Shown: positions 13,955 through 48,963 of the stretch, piece after piece | How the letters are laid out: every line of letters begins with the position of its first letter | Numbering within the stretch: the first letter of the stretch is position 1 | Assembly (NCBI GenBank): GCA_039720395.1 | Contig: CM077822.1 | Coordinates: 17,129,043 to 17,193,042 of the forward strand | Direction: 5' to 3' | Origin: Liquidambar formosana | Lineage: Eukaryota > Streptophyta > Magnoliopsida > Saxifragales > Altingiaceae | DNA length: 64,000 nucleotides | Made by a program: the position numbers and the translations under genes | The notes under the pieces: generated by a model | Seen by the model: only the letters and a program-made list of their open reading frames with translations | What the model was told of the DNA's origin: nothing | Database searches by the model: none

Positions 13955-14064
13955 ATAATTCAGTACTTCAATTGGTCCTTTTAGATCTGTTGGTAAAACT
14001 TCTTTTAAGACTTTTAATTCTAAAAATAAATCTCCCCCAATAATATCAAAGTGCCCCTTATGTT

Positions 14065-14104
<40 letters not shown>

Positions 14105-14585
14105 GAGAGAGAGAGAGAGAGGAAAGAAAAAGTATAGAAATTAATTAATTAAAGAGAGAACGGTTTGGACATGTGGTGTACCTGACTTCTTCTTAGTCTG
14201 AGAGGTAATCAAATACTTTTAATCTTCTAAATAGAATTTTGATATTATCTAATTAGGATGGAGGTAGTGAGAGGTTGAGAGCACTAAGAGAGGAAGAGAG
14301 GAGGAGGTTGGAGTTTGGAAGCTCAAGGCAAATTGACAGAGGCGTTAGATCTGATCAGATTTAGGATTAATTTTTTTTTTAATTTTTATTTATTTATTTA
14401 TTTATTTATGGTTTTAGGCTTGAGTTGAGTAGATTATTTGGCCATTTGGGTTATTGTATATGGACTTGGGTTAGAAACTTTGGAATTATTTGGGGTCTAA
14501 AAACTTGGATTAGGGCCTTTCTCATCTAGTTATTATTATTATTATTATTATTATTATTTTGACTTATTATGAAGGTAACAACTAA

Positions 14586-15608
14586 GGCCCTGTTTGGGAA
14601 AACTGTAACTTTTGCTTTTAGGAAAAAGCGGAAGAGAATCAGAAGTTATGAGTAACAGAAGAGAATCAGTCTCTTTTTGGAAACTGTATTCAAAAGTGCT
14701 GTTAGAGCTGAAAGTGATTTTTTGTCTGCTTGGGATGAACATTTGATGTTGTTGTTATAACCCTAAATTGATTGAACTATTCCTTATAATATATGAATTT
14801 TTTTTTTTTTTTTTTTTTGTTCTATTTGGTATTAGTAGCGATTATTTTATTTTATTTTTTATAAATATTAATGATTGGAGATATCGTAGGTGATACTTTT
14901 ATCAAAATTTGAGCCCTAATAGCTTAGGTAAGGCGTCTCATAACCACACAAACAACAAGAGCGACAAGGCATTACAACGATAACCTTTGGAAAACACACA
15001 CAAGACTTGACCTCTCGATCAACCCCACAAAGGTATATTATTTGGGATTTTTCTTATGTTTTTTTTTTTTTTTAAATATTTTTTCCTTACTTAAAACAAA
15101 GAAAAAAGAGAGAGCTTGAATTGATATATATATATATATATATATTTTTTTTTTTTAAATTATTATAAATCCAAATTTTATGGAATCAATTCTTGAAAAA
15201 ATTCCAACAAATATAAATCAATGAATGTATGAAGAGAGGGAAAAAAAAAAAAAAAAAAGATTTGAAGTTTAGATTAGGATCCTACAAGTCCAAGTTGGTT
15301 GAAGTTACCAAGACATTAATGCCGGCAGAAAAGAGGAGTACAGGAGAGGAGAAGACTTGGGTCTAAGGTGGAAAAAATTGTTTCCATACTCAAGCATTAA
15401 CGGTAGTTTTAGAAATGTGGAAAGTTATTAAAATCCTCAGCAAAAGCTAACACCAACTTTTGATTAAAAGCTGAGGGCAGTCTGCTTATTATAGAATCAT
15501 TTTTTGAGCTTAAAAGTGATTATGATTTAAACTACCAAACAGAACTAAAAGTGATTTTAAGCTTCAAAAGTGATTTTAGACCATCTAAAAACTTAGCCAA
15601 ACAGGGCC
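14586..15608. mobile_element. Tourist-like (PIF/Harbinger type) element, 1023 bp
   Basis: Perfect 12-bp inverted ends GGCCCTGTTTGG and CCAAACAGGGCC are flanked by TAA on both sides (14583-14585 and 15609-15611). It splits hAT sequence that is continuous in the related element at 37676 (around GGGCCCCAACTTAG). It contains TA and poly-A/T tracts and no transposase frame. Confidence 0.8.
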
Positions 15609-16243
15609 TAAGTTGGGGTCCTTATTTTTTGTCAAAATTTTGGGGCCTTAGGCGGCTGCCTGAGTAGTCTGACCTCAGGGTCGACCTTAATACCATGTAA
15701 AACTGAGCCTAACTCATAACAAAAGACCAATATAATGGGATGAGGTTTACACTAGGCTTATAAGGAGCAAACAGGATCAAGGCACAGGCGATGTGGGACA
15801 ATCTAACACATACTTTGCCATTGCAAGCTGCAAGAAGATTGGGTATTTGGCCAAAAAAGGTTGGGTTTGAAACGAAATTCGAAGTATTGTTCGTATGAGA
15901 GCACATGCACGCCGAGGTTATCATCTTTGGATTTTCAATGAACTGTAAGGCTCACGCCAATGCCCAACTCATTTTTGATCCTTACATGAGTTCTTTCTAC
16001 AAAAGCTGCACATCGTGTGACGAGCAACAAAAACATCACTACAACATGTTTATTGAATAAAATCATGTTTGTAACCTTTTCTTGGTGGATTGTTGGTTTA
16101 AGGCTAGCTTATAGGGTTCTGAGAAGCTTTGTTTTTTTATAGGGAGGCTTTTAAAGGTGCAGAACTTTTGCTTATGTACCACACTTAACTTCCATCTCAT
16201 CCTTAGCAAAATAAAAATAAAAATAAAAACTTTTTAAAGCAGA

Positions 16244-16525
16244 AGGATAATTGTACTTTATAATCCGATCCATTTATGGTGCAACAATAAATGCGTGACT
16301 GATTTCATGCCAATTAATGCAGCTTGTATGGAAAATTTCCCCCGCAAAGAGTTGGTTAAAGTTTTGAACCATTTACTGTAATAATAAATACCCTCTTATT
16401 TGTTTGTCGAAAAAAAGAACAACCCGCCAAACGTATTTAAAGCAGACGGATCTTTGCCAATTTTGTTTTGGCCGATTTCCATGCCAATTGATGTGCACCC
16501 TGTATAAAATTTGCTCTAGCAAACA
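16244..16525. repeat. SPH-upstream repeat, two clear tandem units
   Basis: Unit 1 (16244-16378) and unit 2 (16379-16525) share CCATTTA(C/T)GGT-like, AATAAATGC/ACCC, TTTAAAGCAGA, and GCCAATTAATGCAGC / GCCAATTGATGTGC followed by TGTAT. They lie directly upstream of the split SPH gene. Confidence 0.65.
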
Positions 16526-16560
16526 ATTACGCGTAGTCAAGACCACTTGTGGTGGTCAAT

Positions 16561-16700
16561 GGCCTTGGGTCTAGTGAGTAATGACAAATCTGATCCCAAT
16601 AAGGATATGGGATTTATAAAGGTTTTGGTTTCGATTCTACATGAATGCATGCATGGGTGTCTATTCTCCTATTGTTTGGCCAAAAATAAAAAAAATAAAT
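16561..16700 (+). mobile_element. SINE-like repeat (putative)
   Basis: Reads GGCCTTGGGTCTAGTGAG, an internal TTGGTTTCGATTCTACATG (box-B-like), then CTCCTATTGTTTGGCC and an A-rich tail. The block-2 copy is at 44340-44468. Confidence 0.45.
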
Positions 16701-17058
16701 AAATATCTATCTATCTATATATATATATATATATATATAAAATAGATATCAAGATATGCAAATCAAGCTATCAAACAAAAGAAGGAAAAAAAAAAAAAAT
16801 TATGGTAACATGGGTCTTTCATTTGTTTTGAAGTAGTTAAGAGACTTCACAAAATCAAGCATATTATTCATTCAAACATCACACCGTGCGATCGGTGTTA
16901 GAACATTGGGGATTCATCTAGGTTCCTTCTTTGAGTGATGGGGATTTTGAGGCTTGAGTAAGAGGAGAGAAGAGAGAGGTGAAGTGGTTATAAATGTTAT
17001 TATGTGTAATAAACAAATTGTGAGGAGTGAAGGAGGTCATGGGAGGTAGCACAAATAG

Positions 17059-17612
17059 AGATGGCAATGGGGCAGGTTTGGGACTAGACACCCTTATCCT
17101 GAACCTATCCTGCTAAAGATAATATCTTCTCAAACCGGTCCCAACCCCATGCCGGGATCGGACGGGCCGAATTGACAAAAATATATATAACGGGCGGGGC
17201 GGGTCTTGTCAGGTCATTTACATTGATAGAAAACAAATTCTATTTAAAAATGAGAAGAAAAAATCAATCCTAAATCACACATTTCACTCGTAGATTTTTT
17301 TCCTCTTTATGGTATTGGTGAAGTAAATACTAAAAGAATTTAAACATAAACATAAACTCATGAAAAAAGTAACTAATGGAAAATGTAGAATTCAAGAAAA
17401 TATGAAAGGTATTAAAAAAGATCAATATTTATTTATACATATTCAGGTGGGGCAAGGCGATCTTAAACCATTCCCCATCCCAAATTCGATACAGGTTTTT
17501 ACTTTCTCCCAAAATCCACTTGCCTCTAATCTATTTACTTGTTCCCTAAGCCTATCCCAAAAAAGGGTGGGATATAGCAGGATATTCGCTTTGTCAGGTT
17601 CATTGCCATCCC
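17059..17612. mobile_element. Foldback MITE-like element with GGATGGCAATG ends
   Basis: Starts GAGATGGCAATGGGGCAGG and ends GTTCATTGCCATCC, so the termini are inverted. The interior is non-coding, with a GGCGGGGCGGG motif. No clear target duplication; the superfamily is not assigned. The block-2 copy is at 44735-45296. Confidence 0.5.
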
Positions 17613-17788
17613 TAAGCGTAAATAGCGCTACGACTTAAAACAACGAAGGTTATAGAGGATGTGTGTTCTCGTAGATTTTTGAAAAAAAAGAAAGAAAAAA
17701 CAACTACTCAAGAGGCTTTGCACGAAAGCATATTATATTATTCATATCAAAGAGGCCAGGTGTGCATAACAAATATTATTTTTGCCTT

Positions 17789-18202
17789 TCATTTATTCCA
17801 CACATCACAAAGATCATATTTTGAAGATCCCTTGAACCGCAAACATGGTCCCCTTGGCTTTACAAGCCACCAGCAATGGTCTTCACATCGAATAGCATCC
17901 CTGTTCTCAATGTAAATATCGTAATAGTGGGTTACTGTTTCACCTTTCCATCGAAAGCTGCAAAAATATTGGGTAGTCTTCCACAAGTTGTTCCGAAAAT
18001 GAAATTCAAAATAACCTTGAGAATGGAGCAACTGCACACCGAGGTCATCGTCTTTGGATTTACAATGCAAAGTAAGCTCCACGCCCTTGCCCAAGCCATT
18101 TGTGATCCTTACATACGTTTTATACCAAGGAAAGATTCCTGCTTCACACAAAGTGATTAACAACAAAAGCATTAGTAGACCATGTATTTTGAAAATTTTC
18201 AT
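17789..18202 (-). CDS. S-protein homologue (SPH), 137 aa, NGLGKG subgroup
   Basis: Signal peptide at residues 1-22 (MKIFKIHGLLMLLLLITLC), then FPWYKTYVRITNGLGKGVEL. Cysteines are at 47, 81, 106, 110, 120 and 132. Its sequence differs clearly from the NELGDG subgroup: no NLT sequon near the first cysteine, FRWKGETVTHYYDIY in the middle, and a KPRGPC turn. It is closer to the genes at 51372-51788 and 54911-55330. The block-2 copy (45466-45879) differs at four residues, all mild. A single exon with the conserved start; apparently functional. Confidence 0.9.
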   Translation of the reverse strand: MKIFKIHGLLMLLLLITLCEAGIFPWYKTYVRITNGLGKGVELTLHCKSKDDDLGVQLLHSQGYFEFHFRNNLWKTTQYFCSFRWKGETVTHYYDIYIENRDAIRCEDHCWWLVKPRGPCLRFKGSSKYDLCDVWNK

Positions 18203-18257
18203 GGTGGTGGCCTTTTAGTTGGTGGGATAGTACTTGGGTTTTTGGGCTTCTATCTCA

Positions 18258-18264
18258 ATTTATA
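18258..18264 (-). promoter_or_regulatory. TATA box of the SPH gene at 17789-18202
   Basis: The minus strand reads GCCTATAAATTGAGATAG, about 56-62 bp upstream of the ATG. Confidence 0.6.
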
Positions 18265-18486
18265 GGCAATGAAGCTTGTGCTCAAAAGAATGCCTACTTA
18301 TATGGGTGGCATCCTCTTATGGAATAGCAATTAATATCTATTAAAGATACACAATGAAGAAATAAGTGTGTGAGAAAATGTATTTGTACAACTTTCTAAG
18401 CATTTTCATATTTTCTATACTATTGGTACTTTTTTTTAAATGCATTTCCACATTTTAATTCTATGCTATTTGCACAATTTTTTATA

Positions 18487-18688
18487 GGGTAAGTTACAGA
18501 TAATCCCCTAAAGTATTTGGGTGGTCGACATAAAACCTCTTTGATGTACAAAATCAAGTAATGTCCCCCCAAAGTCATCTTGAGGATTGCTTGGTTTTGA
18601 ACGTTTGAGGGGGATTTTGCTTGATTTTAAACATCATGGGGATTTTCTAGAGACCCTCCATACTTCAGGGGGTTATCTACAATTTACC
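18487..18688. mobile_element. Short foldback MITE, 202 bp
   Basis: Starts GGGTAAGTTACAGATAATCC (then CCTAAAGTA) and ends TACTTCAGGG, GGTTATC and CAATTTACC, so the ends are inverted. The middle holds a CTTGAGGATTGCTTGGTTTT block echoed in inverted or direct form. Related to 60564-60893. The block-2 copy is at 46166-46367. Confidence 0.55.
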
Positions 18689-18799
18689 TATTTTTATACA
18701 ATTTCACATTTTTTTAATGCACTTATTACTGCATTAAATGTATCTTAACATATAGAGATATTCCCTTCTATCTTTTTCCATCTCTTTTTTGTTTTTTGG

Positions 18800-19035
18800 A
18801 AAAGTAATCAATAAGTCTATTTAAAATAAATGGACTTTAGCAAGAGTTGTTGATTGATTAATTAAAATGCCAATTAATGCAGCATTTTTTTTTAAATAGT
18901 TAAACCTCTTTCTATTTATTTTTCTTCTGCTTTTTTTTTTTCCTTTTTTTCTTATGGGAAAGGAACAATTAAACCTATTTAATGCGGATGGAGGTTTGCT
19001 AGTTCGCTGATTAACATGACATTTAATGCAGTGTG
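18800..19035. repeat. SPH-upstream repeat, two diverged units
   Basis: CTATTTAAAATAAATGGACT...TGCCAATTAATGCAG is followed by CCTATTTAATGCGGATGGAG...ATGACATTTAATGCAG. They lie upstream of the SPH gene at 17789-18202. Confidence 0.55.
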
Positions 19036-19138
19036 GCTAAAATTGAAATTTCACCTTTGCTTGCTGAACATTTGTGCACATGTGTCATGTCTTCCGAGAT
19101 AGAGAGATTGAGACTCACGGGATCTGTAACGGGATAGA

Positions 19139-19260
19139 GGCCTTGGGTCTAATGAGTAATGACAAATCTTATCCCAATGGAGATGTGTTATTTATAGAAG
19201 TCTTGGTTTCGATTCCACGTGAACGCGTGTAGGAGTGTCTGTTGTCCTATCGTTTGGTCA

Positions 19261-19263
<3 letters not shown>
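19139..19263 (+). mobile_element. SINE-like repeat (putative)
   Basis: GGCCTTGGGTCTAATGAG, then CTTGGTTTCGATTCCACG and TCCTATCGTTTGGTC. It is followed by a TA microsatellite (19266-19292) rather than poly-A. The block-2 copy is at 46822-46947. Confidence 0.45.
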
Positions 19264-19296
<33 letters not shown>

Positions 19297-21283
19297 GATA
19301 TCAAGATATGCAAACGAAGCTATGAAATAAAAGAAGGGAAAAAAAATTATGGTAGAATGGGTCTTTCATTTGTTTTAAAGTAGTTAAGAGACTTCACAAA
19401 AGCAAGCATATTATTCATTCAAACATCACACCAGAGGTGGGATTGGTGTTAGAACATTGGGGATTCATCTAGGTTCTTTCTTTGAGTGATGGAGGTTTTG
19501 TGACTCGAGTGAGAGGAGAGAAGATGAACATTGGGTCTTTCATTTGTTTTGAGACTTGAGTGAGGTATCACGTACCCACTTATTAATCCTGTGGACAAAA
19601 AATGTAACCACTTATATAATATGACTACGTACATACATGAGGTATTTTGTACCCATTGGCAATATTTAGTCGAATAATCCTTTAGAATATGGGGATTGTC
19701 CACCCATACCATCTCTGTCCTTAATTATGCTACCATTTATTTTAAAGATATTAATCATGATAGGTGTAATTCTAGTTATTGGGAACTCTAATCTTTCAGC
19801 TATTTCTAATAAAACTAACAAGATTTGTAGGTCTATTTCATAGAACCTCCTCCTACTAATGGGAGAAAATTAAATTTTGATAGGTCCTGCAAAAGCAAAT
19901 CTAGACAGAATACTAAAACATCCCTAAATCATGCTAATAACCATGCAAAAGACAAAAATCAAAAGAAATACAAAACCTTAATATGCTCCTATATGCCCTA
20001 GACTTACTATCATGCATGAAAAATATCAAAAACATGTTAAATATGAATTATTATGATGAAAATATCGTATAACAATTCAAAACATGAAAAAAATAAATAA
20101 ATAAATAAAACAAGATGCATTATATAATGATTTTATATAGGAACATAAATAAGCATCCTTACGATGAGTTTTCTTAAGAAAAATCATCCTAAGATAATTT
20201 TACATAGAAAGCACTCCGTGTGAATGATTTTTTCATATATCTTATGTAAAATATATACTTAAGAATGCAAAGAAACTAATGGTGCACTTAAACACACTCC
20301 AGAAAGTACCCATGCAAAGACTCACCCTTTAAAAAGGATAATTATCCTCCAAAAGAATAATCATCTATATACTTATGAAGATGAATCTAACACAGAAATT
20401 GTTCTACATGAAAAATACTTAAAATCATGCATATAAATGAACCATGAAGAGAAAAAAACTCTAACATATCAACTAATATGCTATGCAAAACATACCCCTA
20501 TTGTAGAGAGAGAAAATCACTATTCAACACACAATTCACAAAATCCTACTCCATTAGCATGCTTACACTCAATAACAATCATATAAACTCAATAGAATTA
20601 AGTAATCATGATATTTAAATCAATAACAAGCCTTAAGCATGTAAAGAATTGACTATAAGAAAATAGAGAGAATATATATAGAGAAATGATGGAAATTTAC
20701 AATAAAGAAGACCTTCACTGCGTTCTTCCTTCTTCTTAGGCTTGAACTCCTTCTTATTCTTCTTCAACAATGCAATAGAATGCTCTCTCAAAAATGTATA
20801 TGTGTGCAAATTAGTGGTCCCCTTCTCGATCTCTAGTGAATATGGAGTGTCAAAAGTCCTTTAATGCTAACAAAAAGGTCTATATTTATAGCTATTTAAC
20901 CCTAGGATTCAATGATTAAGATTAATTCACCATAAAACTAATCTAAAACTATTATTAACACCCTTGGTCCTTAAACAATTCAAAGTCACTTAATAATAGG
21001 ATTAAAACTCTTTTGAAACAAGAAAAACGGAGTAAGAGGGTCCAAAAACGCATATCCTTTAAAATAGGGGAAACTGTACGCGGGATCTCGGGTGACTAGT
21101 TGGCCTAACCGGTTGGACTAGTTGGGTGAACCGGTCACCCGAGGCTCAACTCAAGTTCCTCTGATTTTGACTTATTTTGGGTTTTTATCTTAAAATGGTC
21201 ATATCTTGGTCAAATTAACTCTAAATTGAGTGATTCAAAAGCCCAAATTTTCATATTTCAATGAAGAACAAGTGTAGAATATT
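19264..21283. other. AT-rich intergenic region, unclassified repeat likely
   Basis: No gene is supported. 19878-21283 has LTR-like texture, including TATATATA at about 20670 and a TTCTTCTT-rich stretch at 20726-20765. Near 21090 is a run of short repeats of the ACTAGTTGG / ACCGGTTGG / ACCGGTCACCCGAGG type. In block 2 the same sequence continues beyond 48963 without a recognised end, so it may be part of a larger retroelement cut by the duplication edge. Confidence 0.35.
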
Positions 21284-21598
21284 CTTGAATACCCCAGGAC
21301 TGTCCGTGTCGACCAGATGGCCAATTAGGAACATCTCATGGCATTTTTTAATTTTCACGCACATGGACGCGTCCAAATTCATCAAGCGTGACATCCTTGA
21401 AAGTGGCGTTGAGACATTTTACATTCCAATCACTAGAAAATAGAAATTTGACAGATTGAGCTTAAAAAATGTAAAAGTCAAGTAAAAAGCATAGTCCAAT
21501 CAAGAATATTTATGAAAGATCGAGGTGAACATAAAAACTCTTTTGGCCTTTTATTTCAGAAAGACTAGGCCAGCAATAAAGCACAGGGCAACACTTCA

Positions 21599-34693: not shown

Positions 34694-35330
34694 TCAGGGC
34701 TGGCCGTAGAAGTTTTTGGGATCCTAAGCAAACTCCTAGGGGGATCTTGGACATGATTTGAAGCCTTCATTATTTTAGGGATTAAAAAAAATGTATTGAG
34801 GATTGGTTATTGTAACCCATCAATTTTATTTAATTACACACCCCATTAATTTTATTTTTTCAAAGTTTTATAAAAATACAAAACATTTTTATGAAAACTG
34901 GTGACGTGATTTACTAGAAAACATCATTTGGAAGAAGTTTGCAAAAGAAAGGTTTTTCAAAATCTTTATTTAAGTAGGACTTTTTGGCCAAAAATAAAAC
35001 AGAAATCGTAAATGGAAAAAAGGTTTACTTAAATGACAAATTTTGGTGAAAATTTCTTTGCAAAGTTCTTCCAAATGATGTTTTCTATTAGACAATAAGT
35101 CCAGATTTAATAAAAACCTTCTATATTTTTTTGTATAACCTTAATAAAATAAATTTTAATTTGTGGGAGGCGCACAATAAAGTTAGGGAGTGGCAATAAC
35201 CACCCCCCCCATGTACTAATTTTTTTTGGGCCTACTACAAGCATTAGAATTGATTTGGAGCCATAATTTTTCATTAAAATTTTGTGGCCCTCTGTGGTTG
35301 CGTACCTTGAATACCCCAGGACCGTCCGTG
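34694..35330. mobile_element. Ancient hAT-like relic, copy next to block 2
   Basis: Left end TCAGGGCTGGCC after TGAGTTAC, right end CCAGGACCGTCCGTG. Homologous to 3401-4040. The left boundary of the large duplication (34909) falls inside it. Confidence 0.5.
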
Positions 35331-35589
35331 TCGATCAGATAGCTAATTAGGAACATCCCATGGCATTTTTTAATTTTCCTGCACATGGAGTCGTCCAAAT
35401 TCATCAAGCGAGGCATCCTTGAAAGTGGCGTTGAGACATTTTACATTCCAATCACTAGAAAATAGAAATTTGACAGATTGAGCTTAAAAAACGTAAAGTA
35501 AAAAGCATAATCCAATCAAGAATATTTATTCATTCAAATATGAAAGAGGTGAACATAAAAAACTTTTTTGGCCTTTTATTTCAGATAGA

Positions 35590-36006
35590 CTAGGCCAGCA
35601 ATAAAGCACAGGGCAACACTACATCATGGATGGTTATTGTTCCACTTATATAGCATATATTATATCGATGAGTATAAATATTTAGGAAACATGGCCCCTC
35701 TTCCAGTACAATCCACCAACAATACCTCTTGCACCTTGCGAAATCCCTCTTCTTAATGTAAATATCGAAATAGTGGGTCACATTTGGCCATTGCATGCTG
35801 CAAAAAAAACGGGTATTCGCCAAAAAAAGGTTGGGCCTGAAACTAAATTCAAAGAACTGATCATTTGGGAGGACATGCACACCGAGGTCATCGTCTTTCG
35901 ATTTACAATGAAGTGTGAGGTTCACGCCATCGCCCAATTCATTTTTGATCCTCACATGGGTTTTGTCAGACAATCCTGCACACTGTGTAACAAGCAACAA
36001 AAACAT
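35590..36006 (-). pseudogene. SPH locus with shortened leader and altered C-terminus
   Basis: A 1-bp deletion after the ancestral ATG (near 36028-36030) breaks the usual start; the next ATG (36004-36006) gives MFLLLVTQCAGLSDKTH, a hydrophobic stretch of about 8 residues instead of 17. Near the end a 2-bp insertion (TATATAGC for TATAGC, about 35648) replaces the YKWNNNHP terminus by YISGTITIHDVVLPCALLLA and reads 36 bases past the usual stop (35624-35626). All six cysteines remain. It may still encode a protein, but secretion is doubtful. Confidence 0.75.
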
Positions 36007-36166
36007 TAGTACAAGATGCTTATTGAATAAATCATGTTTGTAACCTTTTTTCTTGGTGGGAGAAAACGTTGTTGGTTTAGGGCTTTTATCACACTTTATA
36101 AGGGTTCTGATAAGCTCTTTCTACAGTTTCCTTGAATTAAAAAGGAGAAAAAAAAAATGATAATTT

Positions 36167-36803
36167 TGTTTCCTTGAAAAACATTTTTTGCTGACACTTT
36201 GAGGTCGAAATGGAGTGCAGGGCGTGCCAGCCTTTCTCAAGCAATTTGTGCGAATTGTTCGAATGCCTCATCGAAGAGGACTTTACATTTGCCGTGTGAT
36301 TTGAGGATTTCAACATTTTGATCATTCAAAGAGTAATGTGGGTTGATTCCACTATTCACCATGGATGGTAAAATTGAATGTGATCAATTTCGATTGCAAC
36401 GATTTGAATATGTGATCAACAAGCGTTTCAAATGTGTCTTTTGAATTGCAAAGGGGTGCATACGCATTTAACTAGGAAGGTGCACACGTTCCTGAATTTT
36501 TGAATTAGACTGTCTTAAGGGCCAACTACTCCTAAAATAAAGACCGGAATCTTGAGACCGGAGTCTGAAATTGATAATTTGATTCATTGAAGGGGTTTAC
36601 AATAAGGTTTCAAGGCCTATTTATAGAATTATAAGAAAACTACTCATAACTTCATAAAACTACGAATAACTCCCACTAACTTGCAGGTACTAACTCCTTC
36701 ATTCTACTTACTCCACATGTCTTCGTGTAACCTCTAAAGATAAACTCATGCTACATGTGCTGCATTTTCTTTATAATTGTCAAGTGTCCTACAAAATTCA
36801 ACA
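36167..36803 (-). mobile_element. LTR-like repeat (possible solo LTR), copy 2
   Basis: Block-2 copy of 7390-8026, with the same TG...CA ends and TCTATAAATAGGCC TATA motif. The internal 41-codon frame is retained with a few replacements. Confidence 0.45.
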
Positions 36804-37675
36804 CATGATAATAATAATAAAATTTGATACTTTTAGGGTGTAAACAAATAGTTATAACCAATTTATGTTATATCAATAAATGCACTCTTCTTCATTGGAA
36901 AAAAAGAAGTATAAACCTATTAAAAGCAGAAAAAATTTTGCGAAAGTTGTTAGCCATGGCTGCTTTCATGTCATTAATTTAATGAACATTTAAAGCAGAA
37001 GCATTTTGCCGGTCGATTTCCATTTATGGTGCAACAATAGATGCCCTTTAATTTATTGGATAAAGAACAACTCAAACCTATTTAAAGCTGAAGGATTTTC
37101 GCCAAAAGTTGTTAAATAAAATAGGAAATGAAATAGGAAGTTGTTGCTTTTTTATGTTTTCTTCTTCTTTTTTTATTTTCATGAAAAACGAATAAATAAG
37201 CCTATTTAAAGCGGATGGATTTTTGCGAGTTTTGTTGACTGGTTATCATGCCAATTAATGCAACTTTTATAAAATATATAGTTTTTTTTTGGATAAGTAT
37301 AAAATATATAGTTGACCTCCTTCTGTTTGTTTTTTTCTTTTTATTATTTCTTTTCCATTTTTTTTATTGGGAAAGGAATTATTAAGCTTATTTAAAGCAA
37401 ATGGATGTTTGCGAAAAATATTGTATTATTGCCCTAGCAAAAAGACTTCCAAAAATGCTATTGGTTGATTCCACATTTCCACGTACCCATCTCTAAGTCA
37501 AAGTGATTCTTTGATGTTTAAACCAAAGACTAAGTCAATTGCCTTTAAATCTAATGGCATATCCCATTCCAATAGGATTGTGAGGTTTGCGGAGATGTTA
37601 GTTCAGACTCTGTTTGGTTGCGTATGTGGGTGTAGGTATTTATTGGTTTGTTATGTTCCACGAATGCCAACCTTG

Positions 37676-38172
37676 CAGGGCCGGCCCTGAGGTCAAGCTA
37701 CTCAGGCAGCTGCCTAAGGCCCCAAAATTTTGACAAAAAATAAGGGCCCCAACTTAGTTGTTATCTTTTTAATAAGTCAAAAAAAAAAATTAATAACTAG
37801 ATGAGAGAAGGCCCTAATCCAAGTTTAAGGGCCCCAAATGGTTCCTAAGTTTCTAACTCAAGTCTATGTACAATAACCCAAATGGCCAAATAATCTACTT
37901 AATTCAAGCCCAAACAAAAAAAAAAAAAAAAAAAAAGAAGCATTTAACCTTAAATTAGATCAAATCTAATGACAGAGAGCCTCCAAACTCCAACTTCCTC
38001 CTCTCTTCCTCTCTTAGTCCTCTCAACCTCTCACAACCTCCATCCTAATCAGATCAGATCAGAATTCTATTTGGAAGATTAAAAGTATTTGATTACCTCT
38101 CAGACAAAAAAGTAAAGTACACCAAACGTCCAAACCATTCTCTCTTTAATTAATTAATTTCTTTACATTTTC

Positions 38173-38239
<67 letters not shown>

Positions 38240-38934
38240 CACATAATGAGCACTCTAATATTATTGGGGGGATTTATTTTTAAAATTAAAGGTCTTGAAA
38301 GAAGTTTTATCAACAAATTTAAAAAGGCCAATTGAAGTAGTGAATTATTTGAAAGAAATGGACAGTTGTTTCCCAAATGCTTGGATTGCTTATAGAATAT
38401 TGTTGATCATACTAGTTACAGTTACATTTGCAAATGTAAGCTTTTCAAAGTTGAAGTTAATCAAATGTTACCTTCATTCTACTATGTCACAGGAAAGATT
38501 GACCGGATTAGCTATATTATCCATTGAATATGATATGGTAAAAAAGCTTGATTATGCTAACTTAATAAGTGATTTTGCAACTAAAAACGTGAGAAGAGTA
38601 ATATTTAAGTGATACTTTGCTATAGTTGGTTCATTTCTTTTTGGTGTTATAGCTTTAATTTTGTTTTTTTGTTTTTTTTCTTCTTCTTGTATATATGATT
38701 TTTTCTAAATTATAAAGGAAGAAGATTAGATTTTATTTATTTATAGTTCTTATAAAGATTTATTTTTTATCTTAATTTATATAAGCAAATTTTAGTACTC
38801 ATATTTAGGCAAATTTAGTATGTATTAGGGAAAAAAAATTGTTGGATATAAATTTTATTGTGCGTATGAATATGTATAGAGGGCCCCATTTTAGGAGTTC
38901 GCCTAGGGCCCCAAAAAACTCAGGACTGGCCCTG
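37676..38934. mobile_element. hAT element private to block 2, 1259 bp
   Basis: Inverted ends CAGGGCCGGCCCTGAG and CTCAGGACTGGCCCTG; perfect 8-bp duplication CAACCTTG (37668-37675 and 38935-38942). Block 1 has the unoccupied site CCACGAATGCCAACCTTGCT at 8862-8869 with no footprint, so this insertion is younger than the duplication. It includes a CT/TA microsatellite (38178-38240) and a transposase remnant. Confidence 0.92.
38295..38612 (+). pseudogene. hAT transposase C-terminal (dimerisation) fragment
   Basis: A 105-codon frame without an ATG start includes SFSKLKLIKCYLHSTMSQER, LTGLAILSIEYD and a basic end. Same fragment as 13691-13954, in opposite orientation relative to the SPH genes. No catalytic core is present. 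Confidence 0.75.
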
Positions 38935-39004
38935 CAACCTTGCTCTTTCATTAGATATGGTATTCTAGCATGCTATTGACGTTTAAAATTAAACAAGATT
39001 CTCC

Positions 39005-39205
39005 TTGAGTTTATTCTCTACGATTTCCATGACATTCAATCTTTATGCCCATATTTATCTCCATCCACATCCGTTTGGAAAATTAACATTTAACAAGATT
39101 CTTTATGTGAATCTTTCTCATGATTTTTACAGAAATCATAGGGATTCCTATGTTTATCTCCTTCAAGATCCGATTGACAAAAAGACTTATATTGCTTTCC
39201 ATTAA
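39005..39205 (+). other. Conserved short reading frame without ATG, copy 2
   Basis: Block-2 copy of 8932-9132. It differs by three or so residues and has no in-frame stop. Function unknown. Confidence 0.2.
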
Positions 39206-39354
39206 TATTAATCCAATAGTATATTAATCAAATCCGCAGATTTGTACATTGATTTAAATCCCCAAAATAGTTACAACAAGCTTTGCGGTGATTTAGCATT
39301 CCTTAAAATAGTCACAACAAGGTCATGCACTCGTTGGAACCCCAAATGAGCCCC

Positions 39355-40415
39355 ATGTAATTAATTATGAAATTGTATTAAACAGTTACAACTACGAAGG
39401 AACTATTACCAATTTAACATGTAACATTTCATAAAGTTCATGTAGCTATTTTTGTGCCGCAAAAATTCTCATTCATGTAATTGTTATCAAAATAGAAAAC
39501 AATTACATGTAACTATAACAATTACATGTAATTGTTTCCAAAATAGTAACATCATTTTTCATTCATGTAACTGGTTTTTAACGCAAAGAATATCTTTATG
39601 TAATTGCTCATAATTTTTGGAGATATTATAACCCAAATTAATTGCCTCCTTAATTTATACTCACAATTTTTGGAAAATTTTGGAGATATTATAACCTAAA
39701 TTATTGTCCCGTTAATTTATGCTCACTATTTTTGGAGATATTATAACCAAGAGTCTCTCCTTAATTAATAAGATATTAATGAGACAAAGACTGTTTAGGT
39801 AGTATACATGTTTCTTTGTGAGTACTACGAAGGCATTTTCGTCACATGGATATTTGATAGGCTTCATGCCGTATAAGTTTTTCTTTTAGACTTTTGACTA
39901 TACAAGTCCCATTTTAGGGACTTGTGGCCAAATCCCCCTTTATTATTTAGGTTTGCTAAATGTCCAATAAAATTCATATCCGTCAAGTTTCGACAAATGT
40001 AACTAGTTAATGATGTATGGCTTTTTTGTAGACTTATTTTATATAAAGCCATATAACTAACCCATATGTGTGTGTATTTCCAGAAAAATTCGCAATGTAA
40101 CTATTCCGAATAATGTATGAAATTTCATAACTCACATCAACAATGTCAAAATCCCTAAATCAGAATTCAAATAAATCAAAACAAACTCCTATGTTTAGTT
40201 ATATGAATAGTTACATGCCTACACTTCGTCTTCGTCATTCATTTGTTCATCATGTACCCGTTCCCTGTTATAACAGTTACAGTAACTACAATCACAGACA
40301 TCTCTAGTTACATGTAACTGAGACCTAATTAACTAATTACCCATTCAATTTCTTTAACAAAAAAAAAAAAAAAAAAAAAAACCAACCTAAATTTAGTTAC
40401 ATGTTCAAAAAGTTA
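39355..40415. repeat. GTTACATGTAAC-rich region, copy 2
   Basis: Block-2 copy of 9290-10345, including the triple TTTTTGGAGATATTATAACC repeat (about 39615-39750). A run of about 22 A bases lies at 40360-40381. Confidence 0.45.
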
Positions 40416-41269
40416 CACGATGAAACAGATGGTCTACTACCAAAGGGATGCCCGTAGGATTGTGAATGATAAGGGGAGAAAAAGTAGGAGTAGTAATTGA
40501 GGGAATTGAGGGAGGTAAGAAAGGACTTGACAAAGATGGAGAGAGAGAGAGTTTTGGGAAGTATGGGAAAATAAAGGAGAAGAGTTATGAATGGGCAAAA
40601 TAATGGAGGGGAGTTATGGGAAATAATTGAGGGAGGTTAAGAAAGAAGGAGTGAGCATATCACAGTAGGGAAAGTAGGGGACGTTGAGAGTGGAAGGGAA
40701 GAATTTGAGTGGTGCAGATTTTGTAGGGATTTGGCCAAAATTCAAGGAGATTTTCTAGGTGAGTTATTCCTATTTCTGATCTTTATACGATTTGTATCTT
40801 CATAGCAGGGGCATTTTTGTCTTCCCAACTTATAGTGTACTAGAAGATAAATGTGTTTTTAAAGAGAGACTTTACACAACACAAGCATTACTTTTTGAAC
40901 TTGAGCCCAAATCCCCCCCCCCCCCCCCCCCAAAAAAAAGGGACATCCCATGCCATTTTTTAATTTTCACACACATGGAGTAGTCGTCTAAATTCATCAA
41001 GCGTGACATCCTTAAAAGTGGCGTGGAGGCAGAAAGAGCGTAAAAATGCAAAGTCGGGTGATTCGATGTTTAATATACACTATAGAATAGACATCAAAAT
41101 CAAGATCAATGGTATGTCATTTGTATTTGTATTGGAATAGTCAATAAAAAGGCATTATCCAATCAAGATATTTATTCATTCAAATACCAAAGAGGTGGAC
41201 ATAAAAAACTTTTCTGGCCTTTTATTTCAGATCGACTAGGCTAGTAATAAAGCAGAGGGCAACACTCCA

Positions 41270-41680
41270 TCATGGATGCTTATTGTTCCACTTATAGCAT
41301 ATATTATATCGATGAGTATAAATATTTAGGAAACATGGCCCCTCTTCCAGTACAATCCACCAACAATTCCTCTTACACCTTGGGAAATCCCTCTTCTGAA
41401 TGTAAATATCGAAATAGTGGGTCACATTTGGCCATTGCATGCTACAAAAAAAACGGGTATTTGGCAAAAAAAAGTTGGGTCGGAAACTAAATTCGAAGAA
41501 TCGATCCTTTGGGAGCACATGCACACCGAGGTCATCGTCTTTGGATTTACAATGAACTGTAAGGTTCGCGCCATCGCCCAATTCATTTTTGATCCTTACA
41601 TGGGTTTTGTCAAACAATCCAGCACACTGTGTAACAAGCAACAAAAACATTAGTACAATATGCTTATTGAATAAAATCAT
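41270..41680 (-). CDS. S-protein homologue (SPH), 136 aa, intact (copy of 11190-11600)
   Basis: Identical to the product of 11190-11600 except Leu for Trp at residue 72, in the loop before the second cysteine. Signal peptide, six cysteines and both sequons are kept. Flanks are nearly identical too, so little selection can be inferred from the identity. Two functional copies of this gene are therefore likely. Confidence 0.9.
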   Translation of the reverse strand: MILFNKHIVLMFLLLVTQCAGLFDKTHVRIKNELGDGANLTVHCKSKDDDLGVHVLPKDRFFEFSFRPNFFLPNTRFFCSMQWPNVTHYFDIYIQKRDFPRCKRNCWWIVLEEGPCFLNIYTHRYNICYKWNNKHP

Positions 41681-41738
41681 GTTTGTAACCTTTTTTCTTG
41701 GTGGGAGAAAATGTTGTTGGTTTAGGGCTTTTATCTCA

Positions 41739-41746
41739 CTTTATAA
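41739..41746 (-). promoter_or_regulatory. TATA box of the SPH gene at 41270-41680
   Basis: The minus strand reads CCTTATAAAGTGAGATAAAAG, as in the block-1 copy. Confidence 0.6.
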
Positions 41747-42567
41747 GGATCTGATAAGCTTTTTCTACAGTTGCCAAGAATTAAAAACGAAAAAAAAAAA
41801 AATTGATAATAGTTAGCCATGGCTGCTTTCATGTCATTTAATGAACCTATTTAAAGGAGAAGGATTTTCGCCAAAAGTTTTTAAATAAAATAGGAAATTA
41901 AATAGGAAGTTATTGCTATTTTATCTTTTCTTTTTCCTTTTTTATTTATTTGGAAAACGAAATAAATAAGCCTATTTAAAGCGGATGGATTTTTGCAATT
42001 GTTGTTGTTGGCTGGTTAATGGTTACCATGCCAATTAATGTAACTTTTATAAAATAGTTGACCTCCATCTGTTTGTTTTTTTCTTTTTATTATTTTTTTT
42101 TTCCAAAAGGAATTATTAAACTTATTTAAAGCAAATGGATGTTTGCTTGGCTGATTAACATGGAAATTAATGTGCCATGCATTAATGCTTGAAAATGATG
42201 AAAATGTATTGTAAATGGTGAAAGTTACTTGGAAATAAGTGAAAATATTTGGAAAATTATGAAAACACATTTTTTCATATTGGGTTATTAATTGTATCTT
42301 AACATGTGCCTTAGAGCACATGTTAAGAAAACCCTAAAATATTGCACGATCGAGCAAATAGTTACCACGAACATATCCGACCAAAAAATAATTTATGAAT
42401 TTAAGTTAGTACAATTCTCTTAGCCTAGCCAAAACGTTTGTCCATTTCGGAGCAAGACTTCCAAAAATGCTATTGGTTGATTCCACATTTCCACATACCA
42501 TCTTTTAAAGTGAAAAAAATGCTAAGTCTAAGCGATTCTTTTATGCTTGACACCAAAGAATAGGATA

Positions 42568-42709
42568 ATTGTCTTTGGGTTTAATGACATGTCCCATCTC
42601 AACAGGCATGTGGGGTTTGCGGAAATTTTAATTTCGACTCTACATGAGTTCGTGTGTAGGTGTATGTTCTCTCCTATTATTTGACCAAAAAAACAAAAAA
42701 ACAAAAAAT
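42568..42709 (+). mobile_element. SINE-like repeat (putative), block-2 copy
   Basis: Copy of 12485-12613; the tail is interrupted poly-A (AAAAAACAAAAAAACAAAAAA). Confidence 0.4.
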
Positions 42710-43259
42710 CATGTTCTATTAGCTCGATTTAATTACAAGAAAAAGAGAATATAAAATGAAAGCAAAGAAGAAAGAAAACAACTGATTAAGTTAACTTATA
42801 ATTTAGTCATAATCCAATTCATAAATATAATTAATGAAATGGTCTATAAAAAATGAAACTATAACCTTAAGGCTTTAAACAATAGTTAGGCAAGCTGTAA
42901 CCCACCAAAGAAAAGACATCCAAATCAGGATAGAATGGTGTCTAATGCACTTATATTGAAGCATATAGTCAAAGAGGCATTATCCATTCAAGGATATTCA
43001 TTTATTCAAATATTCAAGAGGTGTAAATAAAAACCATCTTGGGCGCCTTCTATTTCAGATCGACTAGGCGGTAATATGTATAGCAGAGGGCTGCAGGACT
43101 CCATCATGGAGGGTGAGTTTTCCACTCATAGCATAAATCATATGTTCTTGTCAAGATCCAGTAAACATGGCCCCTCTGGTAGTACATTCCACCAACATTT
43201 CTTTGCACACCTCCGCAGATCCCTCTACTCAATGTAAACATCAAAATAGTGGGTCATAT

Positions 43260-43574
43260 TGTAAAACTAGGCCTAACTCATAACAAAAGATCGATGGATG
43301 AGGTTTAGACCAAGCTTATAAGGAGCAAACAGGATCAAAGCACAGGCGATGTGGGACAATCCAATACACCCCCCCACGCGTGGCAGAAGGAGAGCCCAAC
43401 TAACACGCAAGAATGGTGGACCACATAAGCGGGGCTGGACCAAGCTCTAATACCATATTACCATGTAAAACTGAGCCTAACTCATAACAAAAGACCAATA
43501 TAAAGGATGAGGTTTACACTAGGATTATAAGGAGCAAACAGGATCAAGGCACAGGCGATGTGGGCAATCCAACA
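43260..43574 (-). mobile_element. TRIM retrotransposon, 315 bp, without the hAT
   Basis: Left repeat 43260-43368 and right repeat 43464-43574 with TG...CA ends; flanks CATAT (43255-43259) and CATAC (43575-43579). The G-rich tract next to the 3' LTR (C run at 43369-43375) is present. The primer-binding site is altered by a 16-bp footprint (43450-43465). The LTRs carry no 5S rRNA-like promoter, unlike Cassandra TRIMs. Confidence 0.88.
43450..43465. other. Probable hAT excision footprint
   Basis: ATACCATATTACCATG equals two copies of the block-1 hAT target duplication ATACCATG, with only the two bases at the junction changed (GA to AT). Altered bases between two retained target copies are the usual hAT excision product. 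Confidence 0.85.
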
Positions 43575-44339
43575 CATACTTTGCCATTGCAAGCTGCAAG
43601 AAGATTGGGTATTTGGCCAAAAATGGTTGGGTTTGAAACGAAATTCGAAGTACTGTTCATATGAGAGTACATGCATGCCGAGGTTATCATCTTTGGATTT
43701 ACAATCAACTGTGAGGCTCACGCCAATGCCCAACTCATTTTTTATCCTTACATGAGTTCTTTCTACAAAAGCTGCGCATCGTGTGACGAGCAACAAAAAC
43801 ATCACTACAACATGTTTATTGAATAAAATCATGTTTGTAACCTTTTTTTTGGTGGATTGTTGGTTTAAGGCTAGCTTATAGGGTTCTGAGAAGCTTTATT
43901 TTTTTTATAGGGAGGCTTTTAAAGGTGCAGAACTTTTGCTTATATACCACACTTAACTTCCATCTCATCCTTAGCAAAATAAAAAAACAAATAAAAACTT
44001 TTTAAAGCAGAAGGATAATTGTAGGATAATTGTACTTTATAAACCGATCCATTTATGGTGCAACAATAAATGCATGACTGATTTCATGCCAATTAATGCA
44101 GCTTGTATGGAAAATTTCCTCCGCAAAGAGTTGGTTAAAGTTTTGAACCATTTACTATAATAATAAATACCCTCTTATTTGTTTGTCGAAAAAAAGAACA
44201 ACCCGCTAAACGTATTTAAAGCAAACGGATCTTTGCCAATTTTGTTTTGGCCGATTTCCATGCCAATTAATGTGCCCCCTGTATAAAATTTGCTCTGGCA
44301 AACAATTACGCGTAGTCAAGACCACTTGTGGTGGTCAAT

Positions 44340-44468
44340 GGCCTTGGGTCTAATGAGTAATGACAAATCTGATCCCAATAAGGATATGGGATTTATAAAG
44401 GTTTTGGTTTCGATTCTACATGAATGCATGCATGGGTGTCTATTCTCCTATTGTTTGGCCAAAAATAA
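44340..44468 (+). mobile_element. SINE-like repeat (putative), block-2 copy
   Basis: Copy of 16561-16700, followed by a shorter TA tract. Confidence 0.4.
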
Positions 44469-44734
44469 ATATATATATATGGTAGCATGGGTCTTTCATT
44501 TGTTTTGAAGTAGTTAGGAGACTTTACAAAATCAAGCATATTATTCATTCAAACATCACACCATGGGATCGGTGTTAGAACATTGGGGATTCATCTAGGT
44601 TCCTTCTTTGAGTGATGGGGATTTTGAGGCTTGAGTAAGAGGAGAGAAGAGAGAGGTGAAGTGGTTATAAATGTTATTATGTGTAATAAACAAATTGTGA
44701 GGAGTGAGGGAGGTCATGGGAGGTAGCACAAATA

Positions 44735-45296
44735 GAGATGGCAATGGGGTAGGTTGGGGACTAGACACCCTTATCCTGAACCTATCCTATTAAAGATAAT
44801 ATCTTCTCAAACTAGTCCCAACCCCATGCCGGGATCGGACTGGCCGAACTGACAAAAATATATATAGCGGGCGGGGCGGGTCTTGTCGGGTCATTTACAT
44901 TAATAGAAAACAAATTCTATTTAAAAATGAGAAGAAAAAATCAATCCTAAATCACACATTTTACTCGTAAATTTTTTCCTCTTTATGGTATTGGTGAAGT
45001 AAATACTAAAAGAATTTAGACATAAACATAAACTCATGAAAAAAGTAACTAATGGAAAATGTAGAATTCAAGAAAATATGAAAGGTATTAAAAAAGATCA
45101 ATATTTATTTATACATATTCAGGTGGGGCAGGACGATCTTAAACCATACCCCATCCCAAATTTGGTACAGGTTTTTACTTTCTCCCGAAACCCACTTACC
45201 TCTACTCCATTTACTTGTTCCCTAAGCCTATCCCAAAAGGGGCGGGATGTAGCGGGATATTCGCTTTGTCAGGTTCATTGCCATCCCTAAGCGTAA
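44735..45296. mobile_element. Foldback MITE-like element, block-2 copy
   Basis: Copy of 17059-17612 with the same GATGGCAATG inverted ends. Confidence 0.5.
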
Positions 45297-45465
45297 ATAG
45301 CGCTACGACTTAAAACAACGAAGGTTATACAGGATGTGTGTTCTCTTAGATTTAAAAAAAAAAAAAGAAAGAAAAAACAACTACTCAAGAGGCTTTGCCC
45401 GAAAGCATATTATATTATTCATATCAAAGAGGCTAGGTGTGCATAACAAATATTATTTTTGCCTT

Positions 45466-45879
45466 TCATTTATTCCACACATCACAAAGATCATATTTTG
45501 AAGATCCCTTGAACCGCAAACATGGTCCCCTTGGCTTTACAAGCCACCAGCAACGGTCTTCACATCGAACAGCATCCCTGTTCTCAATGTAAATATCGTA
45601 ATAGTGGGTTACTGTTTCACCTTTCCATCGAAAGCTGCAAAAATATTGGGTAGTCTTCCACAAGTTGTTCCGAAAATGAAATTCAAAATAACCTTGAGAA
45701 TGGAGCAACTGCACACCGAGGTCATCATCTTTGGATTTACAATGCAAAGTAAGCTCCACACCCTTGCCCAAGCCATTTGTGATCCTTACATAGGTTTTAT
45801 ACCAAGGAAACATTCCTGCTTCACACAAAGTGATTACCAACAAAAGCATTAATAGACCATGTATTTTGAAAATTTTCAT
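45466..45879 (-). CDS. S-protein homologue (SPH), 137 aa, NGLGKG subgroup (copy of 17789-18202)
   Basis: The same protein as 17789-18202 with four replacements: one Leu to Val in the signal peptide, Ile23 to Met just after it, Ile104 to Val and His109 to Arg next to the third and fourth cysteines. All six cysteines, the signal peptide and the single-exon frame are kept. Apparently functional. Confidence 0.9.
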   Translation of the reverse strand: MKIFKIHGLLMLLLVITLCEAGMFPWYKTYVRITNGLGKGVELTLHCKSKDDDLGVQLLHSQGYFEFHFRNNLWKTTQYFCSFRWKGETVTHYYDIYIENRDAVRCEDRCWWLVKPRGPCLRFKGSSKYDLCDVWNK

Positions 45880-45933
45880 GGTGGTGGCCTTTTAGTTGGT
45901 GGGATAGCACTTGGGTTTTTGGGCTTCTATCTC

Positions 45934-45942
45934 AATTTATAG
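45934..45942 (-). promoter_or_regulatory. TATA box of the SPH gene at 45466-45879
   Basis: The minus strand reads GCCTATAAATTGAGATAG, about 55-63 bp upstream of the ATG. Confidence 0.6.
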
Positions 45943-46165
45943 GCAATGAAGCTTGTGCTCAAAAGAATGCATAGTTATGTGGGTGGCATCCTCTTATGGA
46001 ATAGCAATTAATATCTATTAAAGATACACTTAATGAAGAAATAAGTGTGTGAGAAAATGTATTTGTACAACTTTCTAAGCATTTTCATATTTTCTATACT
46101 ATTAGTACTTTTTTTTAAATGCATTTCCACATTTTAATTCTATGCTATTTGCACAATTTTTTATA

Positions 46166-46367
46166 GGGTAAGTTACAGATAATCTCCTAAAGTATTTGGG
46201 TGGTCGACATAAAACCTCTTTGATGTACAAAATCAAGTAACGTCCCCCCAAAGTCATCTTGAGGATTGCTTGGTTTTGAACATTTGAGGGGGATTTTGCT
46301 TGATTTTGAACATCATGGGGATTTTCTAATGACCCTCCATACTTCAGGGAGTTATATGCAATTTACC
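46166..46367. mobile_element. Short foldback MITE, block-2 copy
   Basis: Copy of 18487-18688. Confidence 0.5.
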
Positions 46368-46821
46368 TATTTTTATGCAATTTCACATTTTTTTTAATGC
46401 ACTTATTATTGCATTAAATGTATCTTAATGTATAGAGATATTCCCTTCTATCTTTTTCCATCTCTTTTTTGTTTTTTGGAAAAGTAGTCAATAAGCCTAT
46501 TTAAAATGTATGGACTTTAGCAAGAGTTGTTGATTGATTAATTAAAATGCCAATTAATGCAGCATTTTTTTTTTAAAATAGTTAAACCTCTTTCTATTTA
46601 TTTTTCTTCTGCTTTTTTTTTTTTTCCTTTTTTTCTTATGGGAAAGGAACAATTAAACCCATTTAATGCGGATGGAGGTTTGCTAGTTCGCTGATTAACA
46701 TGACATTTAATGCAATGTGGCTAAAATTGAAATTTCACCTTTGCTTGCTGAACATTTGTGCACACGTGTCATGTCTTCCGAGATAGAGAGATTGAGACTC
46801 ACGGGATCTGTAAGGAGATAG

Positions 46822-46947
46822 AGGCCTTGGGTCTAATGAGTAATGACAAATCTTATCCCAATGGGGATGTGTTATTTATAGAGGTCTTGGTTTCGATTCC
46901 ACATGAATGCGTGTAGGAGTGTCTGTTGTCCTATCATTTGGCCAAAA
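46822..46947 (+). mobile_element. SINE-like repeat (putative), block-2 copy
   Basis: Copy of 19139-19263; GGTTTCGATTCCACATG is retained. Confidence 0.4.
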
Positions 46948-48963
46948 CAAAATATAAAATATATATAAAATAGATATCAAGATATGTAAACGAAGCTATG
47001 AAACAAAAGAAGGGGAAAAAATTATGGTAGAATGGGTCTTTCATTTGTTTTAAAGTAGTTAAGAGACTTCGCAAAAGCAAGCATATTATTCATTCAAACA
47101 TCACACCGGATGTGGGATTGGTGTTAGAACATTGGGGATTCATCTAGGTTCTTTCTTTGAGTGATGGAGGTTTTATGACTCGAGTGAGAGGAGAGAAGAT
47201 GAACATTGGTTCTTTCATTTGTTTTGAGACTTGAGTGATGTATCACGTACCCACTTATTAATCCTGTGGACGAAAAATGTTACCACTTATACAATATGAC
47301 TACGTACATACATGAGGTATTTTGTACCCATTGGCAATATTTAGTTGAATAATCCTTTAGAATATGGGGATTGTCCACCAATACCATCTCTGTCCTTAAT
47401 TATGCTACCATTTATTTTAAAGATATTAATCATGATAGGTGTAATTCTAGTTATTGGGAACTCTAATCTTTCAACTATTTCTAATAAAACTAACAAGATT
47501 TGCAGGTCTATTTCATAGAACCTCCTCCTACTAATGGGAGAAAATTAAATTTTGATAGGTCATGCAAAAGCAAATCTAGACAGAATACTAAAACATCCCT
47601 AAATCATGCTAATAACCGTGCAAAAGACAAAAATCAAAAGAAAGACAAAACCTTAATATGCTCCTATATGCCCTAGACTTACTATTATGCATGAAAAATA
47701 TCAAAAACATGCTAAATATGAATTATTATGATGAAAATATCATATAACAATTCAAAACATGAAAAAAAAAATAAATAAATAAAACAAGATGCATTATATA
47801 ATGATTTTATGTAGGAACATAAATAAGCATCCTTACGATGAGTTTTCTTAAGAAAAATTATCCTAGGATAATTTTACATAGAAAGCACTCTGCATGAATG
47901 ATTTTTTCACATATCTTATGTAAAATATATATCTAAGAATGCAAAGAAACTAATGGCGCACTTAAACACATGCACTTCAGAGAGCACCCATGCAAAGACT
48001 CATCCTTTAAAAAGGATAATTATCCTCCAAAAGAATAATCATCTATATAACTATGAAGATGAACCTAACACAGAAATTGTCCTACATGAAAAATACTTAA
48101 AATCATGCATATAAATGAACCATGGAAAGAAAACGACTCTAACATATCAACTAATATGCTGTGCAAAACATACCCCTATTGTAGAGAGAGAAAATTACTA
48201 TTCAACACACAATTCACAAAATCCTACTCCATTAGCATGCTTACACTCAGTAACAATCATATAAACTCAATAGAATTAAGTAATCATGATATTTAAATCA
48301 ATAACAAGCCTTAAGCATGTAAAGAATTGACTATAAGAAAATAGAGAGAATATATATAGAGAAATGATGGAAATTTACAATAAAGAAGACCTTCACTATG
48401 TTCTTCCTTCTTCTTAGGCTTGAACTCCTTCTTATTCTTCTTCAACAATGCAATAGAATGCTCTCTCAAAAGTGTATATGTGTGCAAATTAGTGGTCCCC
48501 TTCTCTCTAGTGAATATGGAGTGTCAAAAGTCCTTTAATGTTAACAAAAGGGTCTATATTTATAGCTATCCAACCCTAGGATTCAATGATTGAGATTAAT
48601 TTATCATAAAACTAATCTAAGGCTATTATTAACACCCTTGGTCCTTAAACAGCTTAAAGTCACTTAACAATAAGATTAAAACTCTTTTGAAACAAGAAAA
48701 AGGGAGTAAGAGAGTCTAAAAACGCATATCCGTTAAAATAGGGGAAACTGTATGCGGGATCTCGGGTGACTGGTTGGCCCAACTGGTTGGACTAGTTGAG
48801 TGAACCGGTCACCCAAGGCTCAACTCAAGTTCCTCCGGTTTTGACTTATTTTGGGTTTTTATCTTAAAATGATCATATCTTGGTCAAATTAACTCTAAAT
48901 TGAGTGATTCAAAAGCCCAAATTTTCATATTTCAATTAAGAACAAGTGTAGAATATTCTTGAA

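What the first reader, a model, noticed from the sequence alone, without database searches (positions are those of the whole stretch)
43450..43465. hAT excision footprint paired with its occupied site in the sister block
Block 1 has a hAT at 13366-15689 with duplication ATACCATG. At the same point, block 2 has ATACCATATTACCATG: two target copies with only the junction bases changed. So the hAT was present before the duplication and later left block 2. Occupied site and footprint within one window is a rare direct record that this family transposed by cut-and-paste after the duplication.
Basis: partly seen in the sequence, partly recalled or inferred. Interest (0 to 1): 0.75.

Follow-up and report, generated by a model that had tools for sequence, protein, structure and literature searches.

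The report
Scar left by a departed transposon
In what is very probably a sweetgum genome, one copy of a duplicated stretch still carries a hAT transposon while its sister copy carries only the small scar that such an element leaves when it jumps out; this is a clean natural example of an ordinary, well-known process.

Summary
Block 1 holds a hAT at 13366-15689 between two ATACCATG copies; block 2 reads ATACCATATTACCATG at 43450-43465 at the same point, inside an old TRIM retrotransposon. New evidence backs the footprint reading. (1) The assembly (very probably Liquidambar formosana) has a second haplotype, contig C89, with the hAT in block 1 and the scar in block 2. (2) All 7 other PBS/LTR junctions that I could read for this TRIM family are unduplicated. 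(3) All 217 informative sites of the four-sequence comparison group by block; no gene conversion is seen. (4) The junction bases can be produced by hairpin-type repair of a hAT excision, a consistent but weak fit. (5) Another family member, at 37676-38934, is absent from block 1 and from C89, so the family moved recently. The change from occupied to scar falls between the separation of the blocks (3.5% divergence) and of the haplotypes (1.4%). That it strictly follows the duplication is likely, not proven. Ordinary hAT biology, well documented here; interest modest.

The parts
43450..43465 (+). Excision footprint ATACCATATTACCATG: two copies of the 8-bp target with the junction bases changed
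   Evidence: also in C89 as ATATCATATTACCATG
13366..15689 (+). hAT A, 2,324 bp, non-autonomous, terminal repeats decayed; the occupied partner site
13358..13365 (+). Left target site duplication ATACCATG of hAT A
15690..15697 (+). Right target site duplication ATACCATG of hAT A
14586..15608 (.). Element of 1,023 bp nested in hAT A: ends GGCCCTGTTTGG/CCAAACAGGGCC, flanked by TAA on both sides; PIF/Harbinger-like (label recalled)
   Evidence: present in both haplotypes
13173..15811 (-). TRIM retrotransposon in block 1, split by hAT A at its PBS/LTR junction
   Evidence: PBS label recalled
43260..43576 (-). TRIM retrotransposon in block 2, carrying the footprint at its PBS/LTR junction
6146..21289 (+). 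Block 1
34907..48963 (+). Block 2
37676..38934 (-). hAT B, 1,259 bp, same family, target duplication CAACCTTG at 37668-37675 and 38935-38942; empty in block 1 and in haplotype C89

Best explanation
43450-43465 is the donor-site scar of a cut-and-paste excision. A hAT inserted into the PBS/LTR junction of an old TRIM and duplicated 8 bp (ATACCATG). The stretch was then duplicated. In the block 2 lineage transposase cut the element out; the flanking ends were closed as hairpins, reopened and joined, so that both target copies stayed and only the junction changed: ATACCAT from the left joined to ATTACCATG from the right, the added bases being palindromic bases from the opened right hairpin. In block 1 the element stayed, its terminal repeats decayed and another element inserted into it. 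Shown: the paired states in both haplotypes, the single-copy site in other TRIM copies, the block-wise grouping. Inferred: the hairpin step, transposase supplied in trans, and that the excision followed the duplication (about 0.75).
For: Position and letters. Same pair in the second haplotype C89. 7 of 7 other readable PBS/LTR junctions of the TRIM family are single. 217 of 217 two-state informative sites group by block. The scar is among the 65 joints listed under a hairpin model, which is the accepted route for hAT elements (passages in PMC5873905, and PMC1978519); one- or two-base changes are called the commonest plant Ac/Ds footprints (passage in PMC3744419). The family makes exact 8-bp target duplications in 19 of 27 scorable copies, has a member coding for the hAT dimerisation region and moved after the haplotypes split (hAT B).
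Against: The hairpin fit is weak evidence: 5 of the 16 possible two-base junctions are reachable, the unchanged repeat included, and the left side does not show the complement base seen in many Ac footprints; two ordinary substitutions in a retained duplication would look the same. Order of excision and duplication is not fixed. Dating hAT A by private changes failed its control. No reinserted copy was found, and the search for one was incomplete.
Confidence: 0.92

Rival explanations
1. The excision is real but older than the duplication: the population held an occupied allele and a footprint allele, and an unequal exchange between the two homologues put them side by side.
For: The haplotypes differ by 1.2-1.4% and the blocks by only about 3.5%, so allelic differences could make up a sizeable part of the block divergence; unequal exchange is likely in such a gene array (inference; tandem junction at 21284).
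Against: Needs a particular kind of exchange. Nothing in the sequence favours it over later excision.
Confidence: 0.2
2. An unrelated 8-bp tandem duplication in block 2, by replication slippage or end joining, with two later changes; the hAT entered block 1 only afterwards.
For: Small tandem duplications do occur here (11 bp at 44012; 7 bp at 24452), and near-tandem 8-mers are common (191).
Against: It would have to hit the very 8 bp of the sister block's target duplication in register.
Confidence: 0.03
3. The doubled site is an old variant of the TRIM subfamily.
For: None found.
Against: 7 of 7 other readable junctions are single, and block 1 of both haplotypes shows one target sequence split by the hAT.
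Confidence: 0.02
4. The blocks themselves arose by reversed-ends transposition of hAT elements and the scar is part of that event.
For: Such duplications are described for maize Ac (passages in PMC3744419), and several members of this family lie in the window.
Against: That route puts a hAT end with an 8-bp duplication at the duplication junction; none of the four block borders is at a hAT end.
Confidence: 0.02

Closest known systems
Ac/Ds excision footprints (hAT superfamily)
   Same: Both 8-bp target copies stay, changes sit at the junction, palindromic or lost bases at the joint (passages in PMC5873905, PMC1978519, PMC3744419)
   Different: Seen here as an old natural event between two paralogous blocks and in two haplotypes, not after an induced excision; the element is of another hAT family with ends CAGGGCCGG
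Empty-site comparison of paralogues or haplotypes
   Same: hAT B against its empty site in block 1 and in C89 is a standard case
   Different: At 43450 the site without the element is not virgin but scarred, so loss rather than gain can be read
Reversed-ends transposition of Ac (PMC3744419, passages)
   Same: hAT elements and a direct duplication occur together
   Different: No hAT end at the block borders

Membership tests
hAT superfamily (hAT A and its family) | 8-bp target site duplication | tested here: met
   ATACCATG on both sides of hAT A in both haplotypes; exact 8 bp in 19 of 27 family copies with both ends placed, ends allowed to shift by up to 3 bases. Some of the 19 are duplicated loci sharing one target site, so they are not all independent. 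2 of 29 fetched relatives had no 3' end in the stretch and were dropped.
hAT superfamily (hAT A and its family) | Short terminal inverted repeats | tested here: met
   Family ends CAGGGCCGGTCCTGAG and CAGGGCCGGCCCTGAG; in hAT A decayed
hAT superfamily (hAT A and its family) | Transposase with hAT domains | tested here: met
   Only a fragment: Dimer_Tnp_hAT, E 2.4e-14, in an open frame of hAT B (38259-38609). hAT A aligns to it but was not scanned. No autonomous member was sought.
hAT excision footprint | Target copies kept with changes only at the junction | tested here: met
   ATACCAT-AT-TACCATG against ATACCATG twice
hAT excision footprint | Site that once held the element, single in relatives that never held it | tested here: met
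   Sister block occupied in both haplotypes; 7 of 7 other TRIM junctions single. No other species tested.
hAT excision footprint | Hairpin-type joint | tested here: inconclusive
   Reachable product, but 5 of 16 two-base junctions are
TRIM retrotransposon (host of the insertion) | Two short LTRs, tiny non-coding inner part, PBS next to the LTR | tested here: met
   About 317 bp at 43260-43576 with direct terminal repeats. The reading of TGGTATCAGAGC as a PBS for initiator methionine tRNA is recalled. A clean target duplication was not seen.
Reversed-ends transposition duplication | hAT end with 8-bp duplication at the duplication junction | tested here: not met

The most novel reading that the evidence does not exclude
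This 64-kb array holds, in one assembly with both haplotypes, four states for one hAT family: occupied and decaying (A), excised with a hairpin-type scar (43450), newly inserted and polymorphic (B), and virgin TRIM sites elsewhere. With haplotype and block divergence as clocks, such arrays could measure natural hAT excision and its repair in a long-lived tree, and the element that left block 2 may still be identifiable if it carried the nested element.
Probability: 0.3. Interest if true: 0.4.

Novelty: new member of a known kind. Interest (0 to 1): 0.3.

Why it matters
It is a well-controlled natural record of one transposon excision and its repair, bracketed by block divergence (3.5%) and haplotype divergence (1.4% in the same segments). 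It shows that a duplicated array plus a second haplotype lets one tell excision from never-inserted, which a single comparison usually cannot. It changes no view of how hAT elements work.

Tried and rejected
Ancestral TRIM variant: disfavoured, 7 of 7 other readable PBS/LTR junctions are single. Gene conversion: no conflicting site among 217. Mis-assembly: a second contig shows the same pair. hAT B as the element that left 43450: rejected, it differs from A at 134 of 1,248 sites (B taken two bases short at one end) while the blocks differ by about 3.5%. Dating A by changes found in at most one other copy: abandoned, because the polymorphic copy B looks just as old (B 40 of 1,198, A 35 of 1,218); the measure is also unstable, since an earlier run on 5' parts gave 5 of 657 for changes shared by both A alleles and the full-length run 29 of 1,194. 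Reversed-ends transposition: no hAT end at the block borders. Finding the reinserted copy: of 1,209 first-look candidates 40 were scored and the closest other than A is 94% identical; the C89 allele of A is not in that list either, so the search is not exhaustive. The better query, across the junction of hAT A and its nested element, did not complete. Literature: six search calls bear on footprints; I saw listings and starts of abstracts, and passages of three papers; two of the six returned no paper; none listed showed from its title or abstract start a paired occupied/footprint site in a duplicated block, but the held library is partial. (Liquidambar, TRIM) gave no paper that I used.

Full report
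What is there. The window lies at G000:C3:17129043-17193042 in a 718-Mb assembly. The length of that contig, 49,631,027, equals the longest contig given for a protein named from Liquidambar formosana (P0004), so the species is very probably L. formosana (Altingiaceae). The window is an array of S1-type self-incompatibility-like genes (PF05938 found in the one copy scanned) with two related blocks, 6146-21289 and 34907-48963. Substitutions between blocks are 4.4, 3.2, 2.8 and 3.7% in four segments.

The pair. In block 1 a TRIM retrotransposon (13173-15811) is split by a 2,324-bp hAT at 13366-15689, flanked by ATACCATG on both sides. In block 2 the same TRIM (43260-43576) reads ATACCATATTACCATG at that point. 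The TRIM interrupts the S1-gene homology; nine paralogue stretches that I printed read through that point without it. The scar is therefore unlikely to affect a working gene (inference).

The unduplicated site. Two genome searches with TRIM sequence found 14 and 13 first-look candidates, all scored; the tool calls such counts lower bounds. One search lists 16 matches. Six are the two blocks on C3 and C89; I aligned the other ten loci. Seven PBS/LTR junctions are readable there: two on C7, one each on C6 and C8, three on C1. All seven have one target copy; four read ATACCATG exactly and three differ by one or two bases at the same length. Four matches (two on C7, one on C2, one on C1) are LTR pieces without that junction and were not counted.

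Second haplotype. Contig C89 (238,845 bp) is collinear with the window at about 98% over its first 61.6 kb; 727 of 59,296 aligned bases differ, 1.23%. It carries the hAT in block 1 with both ATACCATG copies (10267 and 12557) and the scar in block 2 with one extra change (ATATCATATTACCATG, 40879). The four sequences give 217 two-state informative sites in the three segments compared and all 217 group block 1 with block 1 and block 2 with block 2 (93, 18 and 106). Between haplotypes, block 1 differs at 140 of 9,995 and block 2 at 138 of 10,011 sites (1.4% each); between the blocks of C3, 345 of 9,979 differ (3.5%). The change from occupied to scar therefore lies between the separation of the block sequences and that of the haplotypes.

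The element family. A first look found 1,209 candidates for the 5' part of hAT A; 40 were scored. Thirty loci were fetched, one of them hAT A itself. Of the other 29, two had no 3' end in the stretch; of the 27 left, 19 show an exact 8-bp target duplication when ends may shift by up to 3 bases. Consensus ends are CAGGGCCGGTCCTGAG and CAGGGCCGGCCCTGAG. In hAT A they are CAAGGGCAGTCCTGAG (in C89 CAAGGGCGGTCCTGAG) and TAAGGTCGACCCTGAG, so both are decayed, mostly alike in the two haplotypes. This may explain why that copy stayed (inference). hAT B (37676-38934, target duplication CAACCTTG) is missing from block 1 and from C89 at the same point, so it is a recent insertion. An open frame in it matches the hAT C-terminal dimerisation region (PF05699, E 2.4e-14).

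Mechanism. For hAT elements the flanking ends are thought to be closed as hairpins after a nick one base outside the element (passages in PMC5873905, and PMC1978519). With up to four palindromic and up to three resected bases per side I listed 65 distinct joints for the target ATACCATG. The scar is one of them: left ATACCAT without added bases and right ATTACCATG with two palindromic bases, or one base resected on the left and three palindromic bases on the right. Of the 16 possible two-base junctions between unchanged 7-mers the model reaches 5, the unchanged repeat included. So the fit is consistent but not strong.

Chance. Near-tandem 8-mers are frequent (191 in the window), so the motif alone is worth little. 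Its weight comes from the coincidence in position, length and letters with the sister block's insertion, and from the single-copy state elsewhere. Indel counts between blocks (43 in 12,827 columns) hold one clear tandem duplication of 8 bp or more (11 bp, 44012); between haplotypes (97 indels) there is one exact 7-bp tandem duplication (24452), and the rest of that size are simple repeats or imperfect.

What remains open. Whether the excision strictly followed the duplication (about 0.75) or was brought in by unequal exchange between two alleles (about 0.2). An attempt to date the insertion of hAT A failed its own control. The landing place of the excised element is unknown.

Verdict. It is an ordinary hAT excision footprint with unusually complete controls.

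Noticed in passing
37676-38934: hAT B, same family as hAT A, with clean ends and target duplication CAACCTTG; absent from block 1 (near 8863) and from haplotype C89, so a polymorphic recent insertion.
   Followed up: yes
26945-27610 and about 4213-4739: Two more, shorter relatives of the same hAT family; the first has the target duplication TTTGATGT, and both seem to be one insertion shared by two paralogous gene copies.
   Followed up: partly
30870-30879 (C89 27916-29571): C89 has an insertion of about 1.65 kb, TGTTAG...CCAACA, flanked by GAAAG on both sides and absent from the window; LTR-type, polymorphic between haplotypes.
   Followed up: partly
57318-59363: Coding remains of another hAT transposase on the - strand: BED zinc finger, hAT-like RNase-H and dimerisation domains, in one frame broken by two stops.
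   Followed up: partly
44012: Exact 11-bp tandem duplication AGGATAATTGT in block 2, single in block 1.
   Followed up: no
21283/21284: At its right end block 1 runs straight into a 95% copy of its own early part (6542-7387), a tandem junction in the S1 gene array with a unit of about 14.7 kb.
   Followed up: partly
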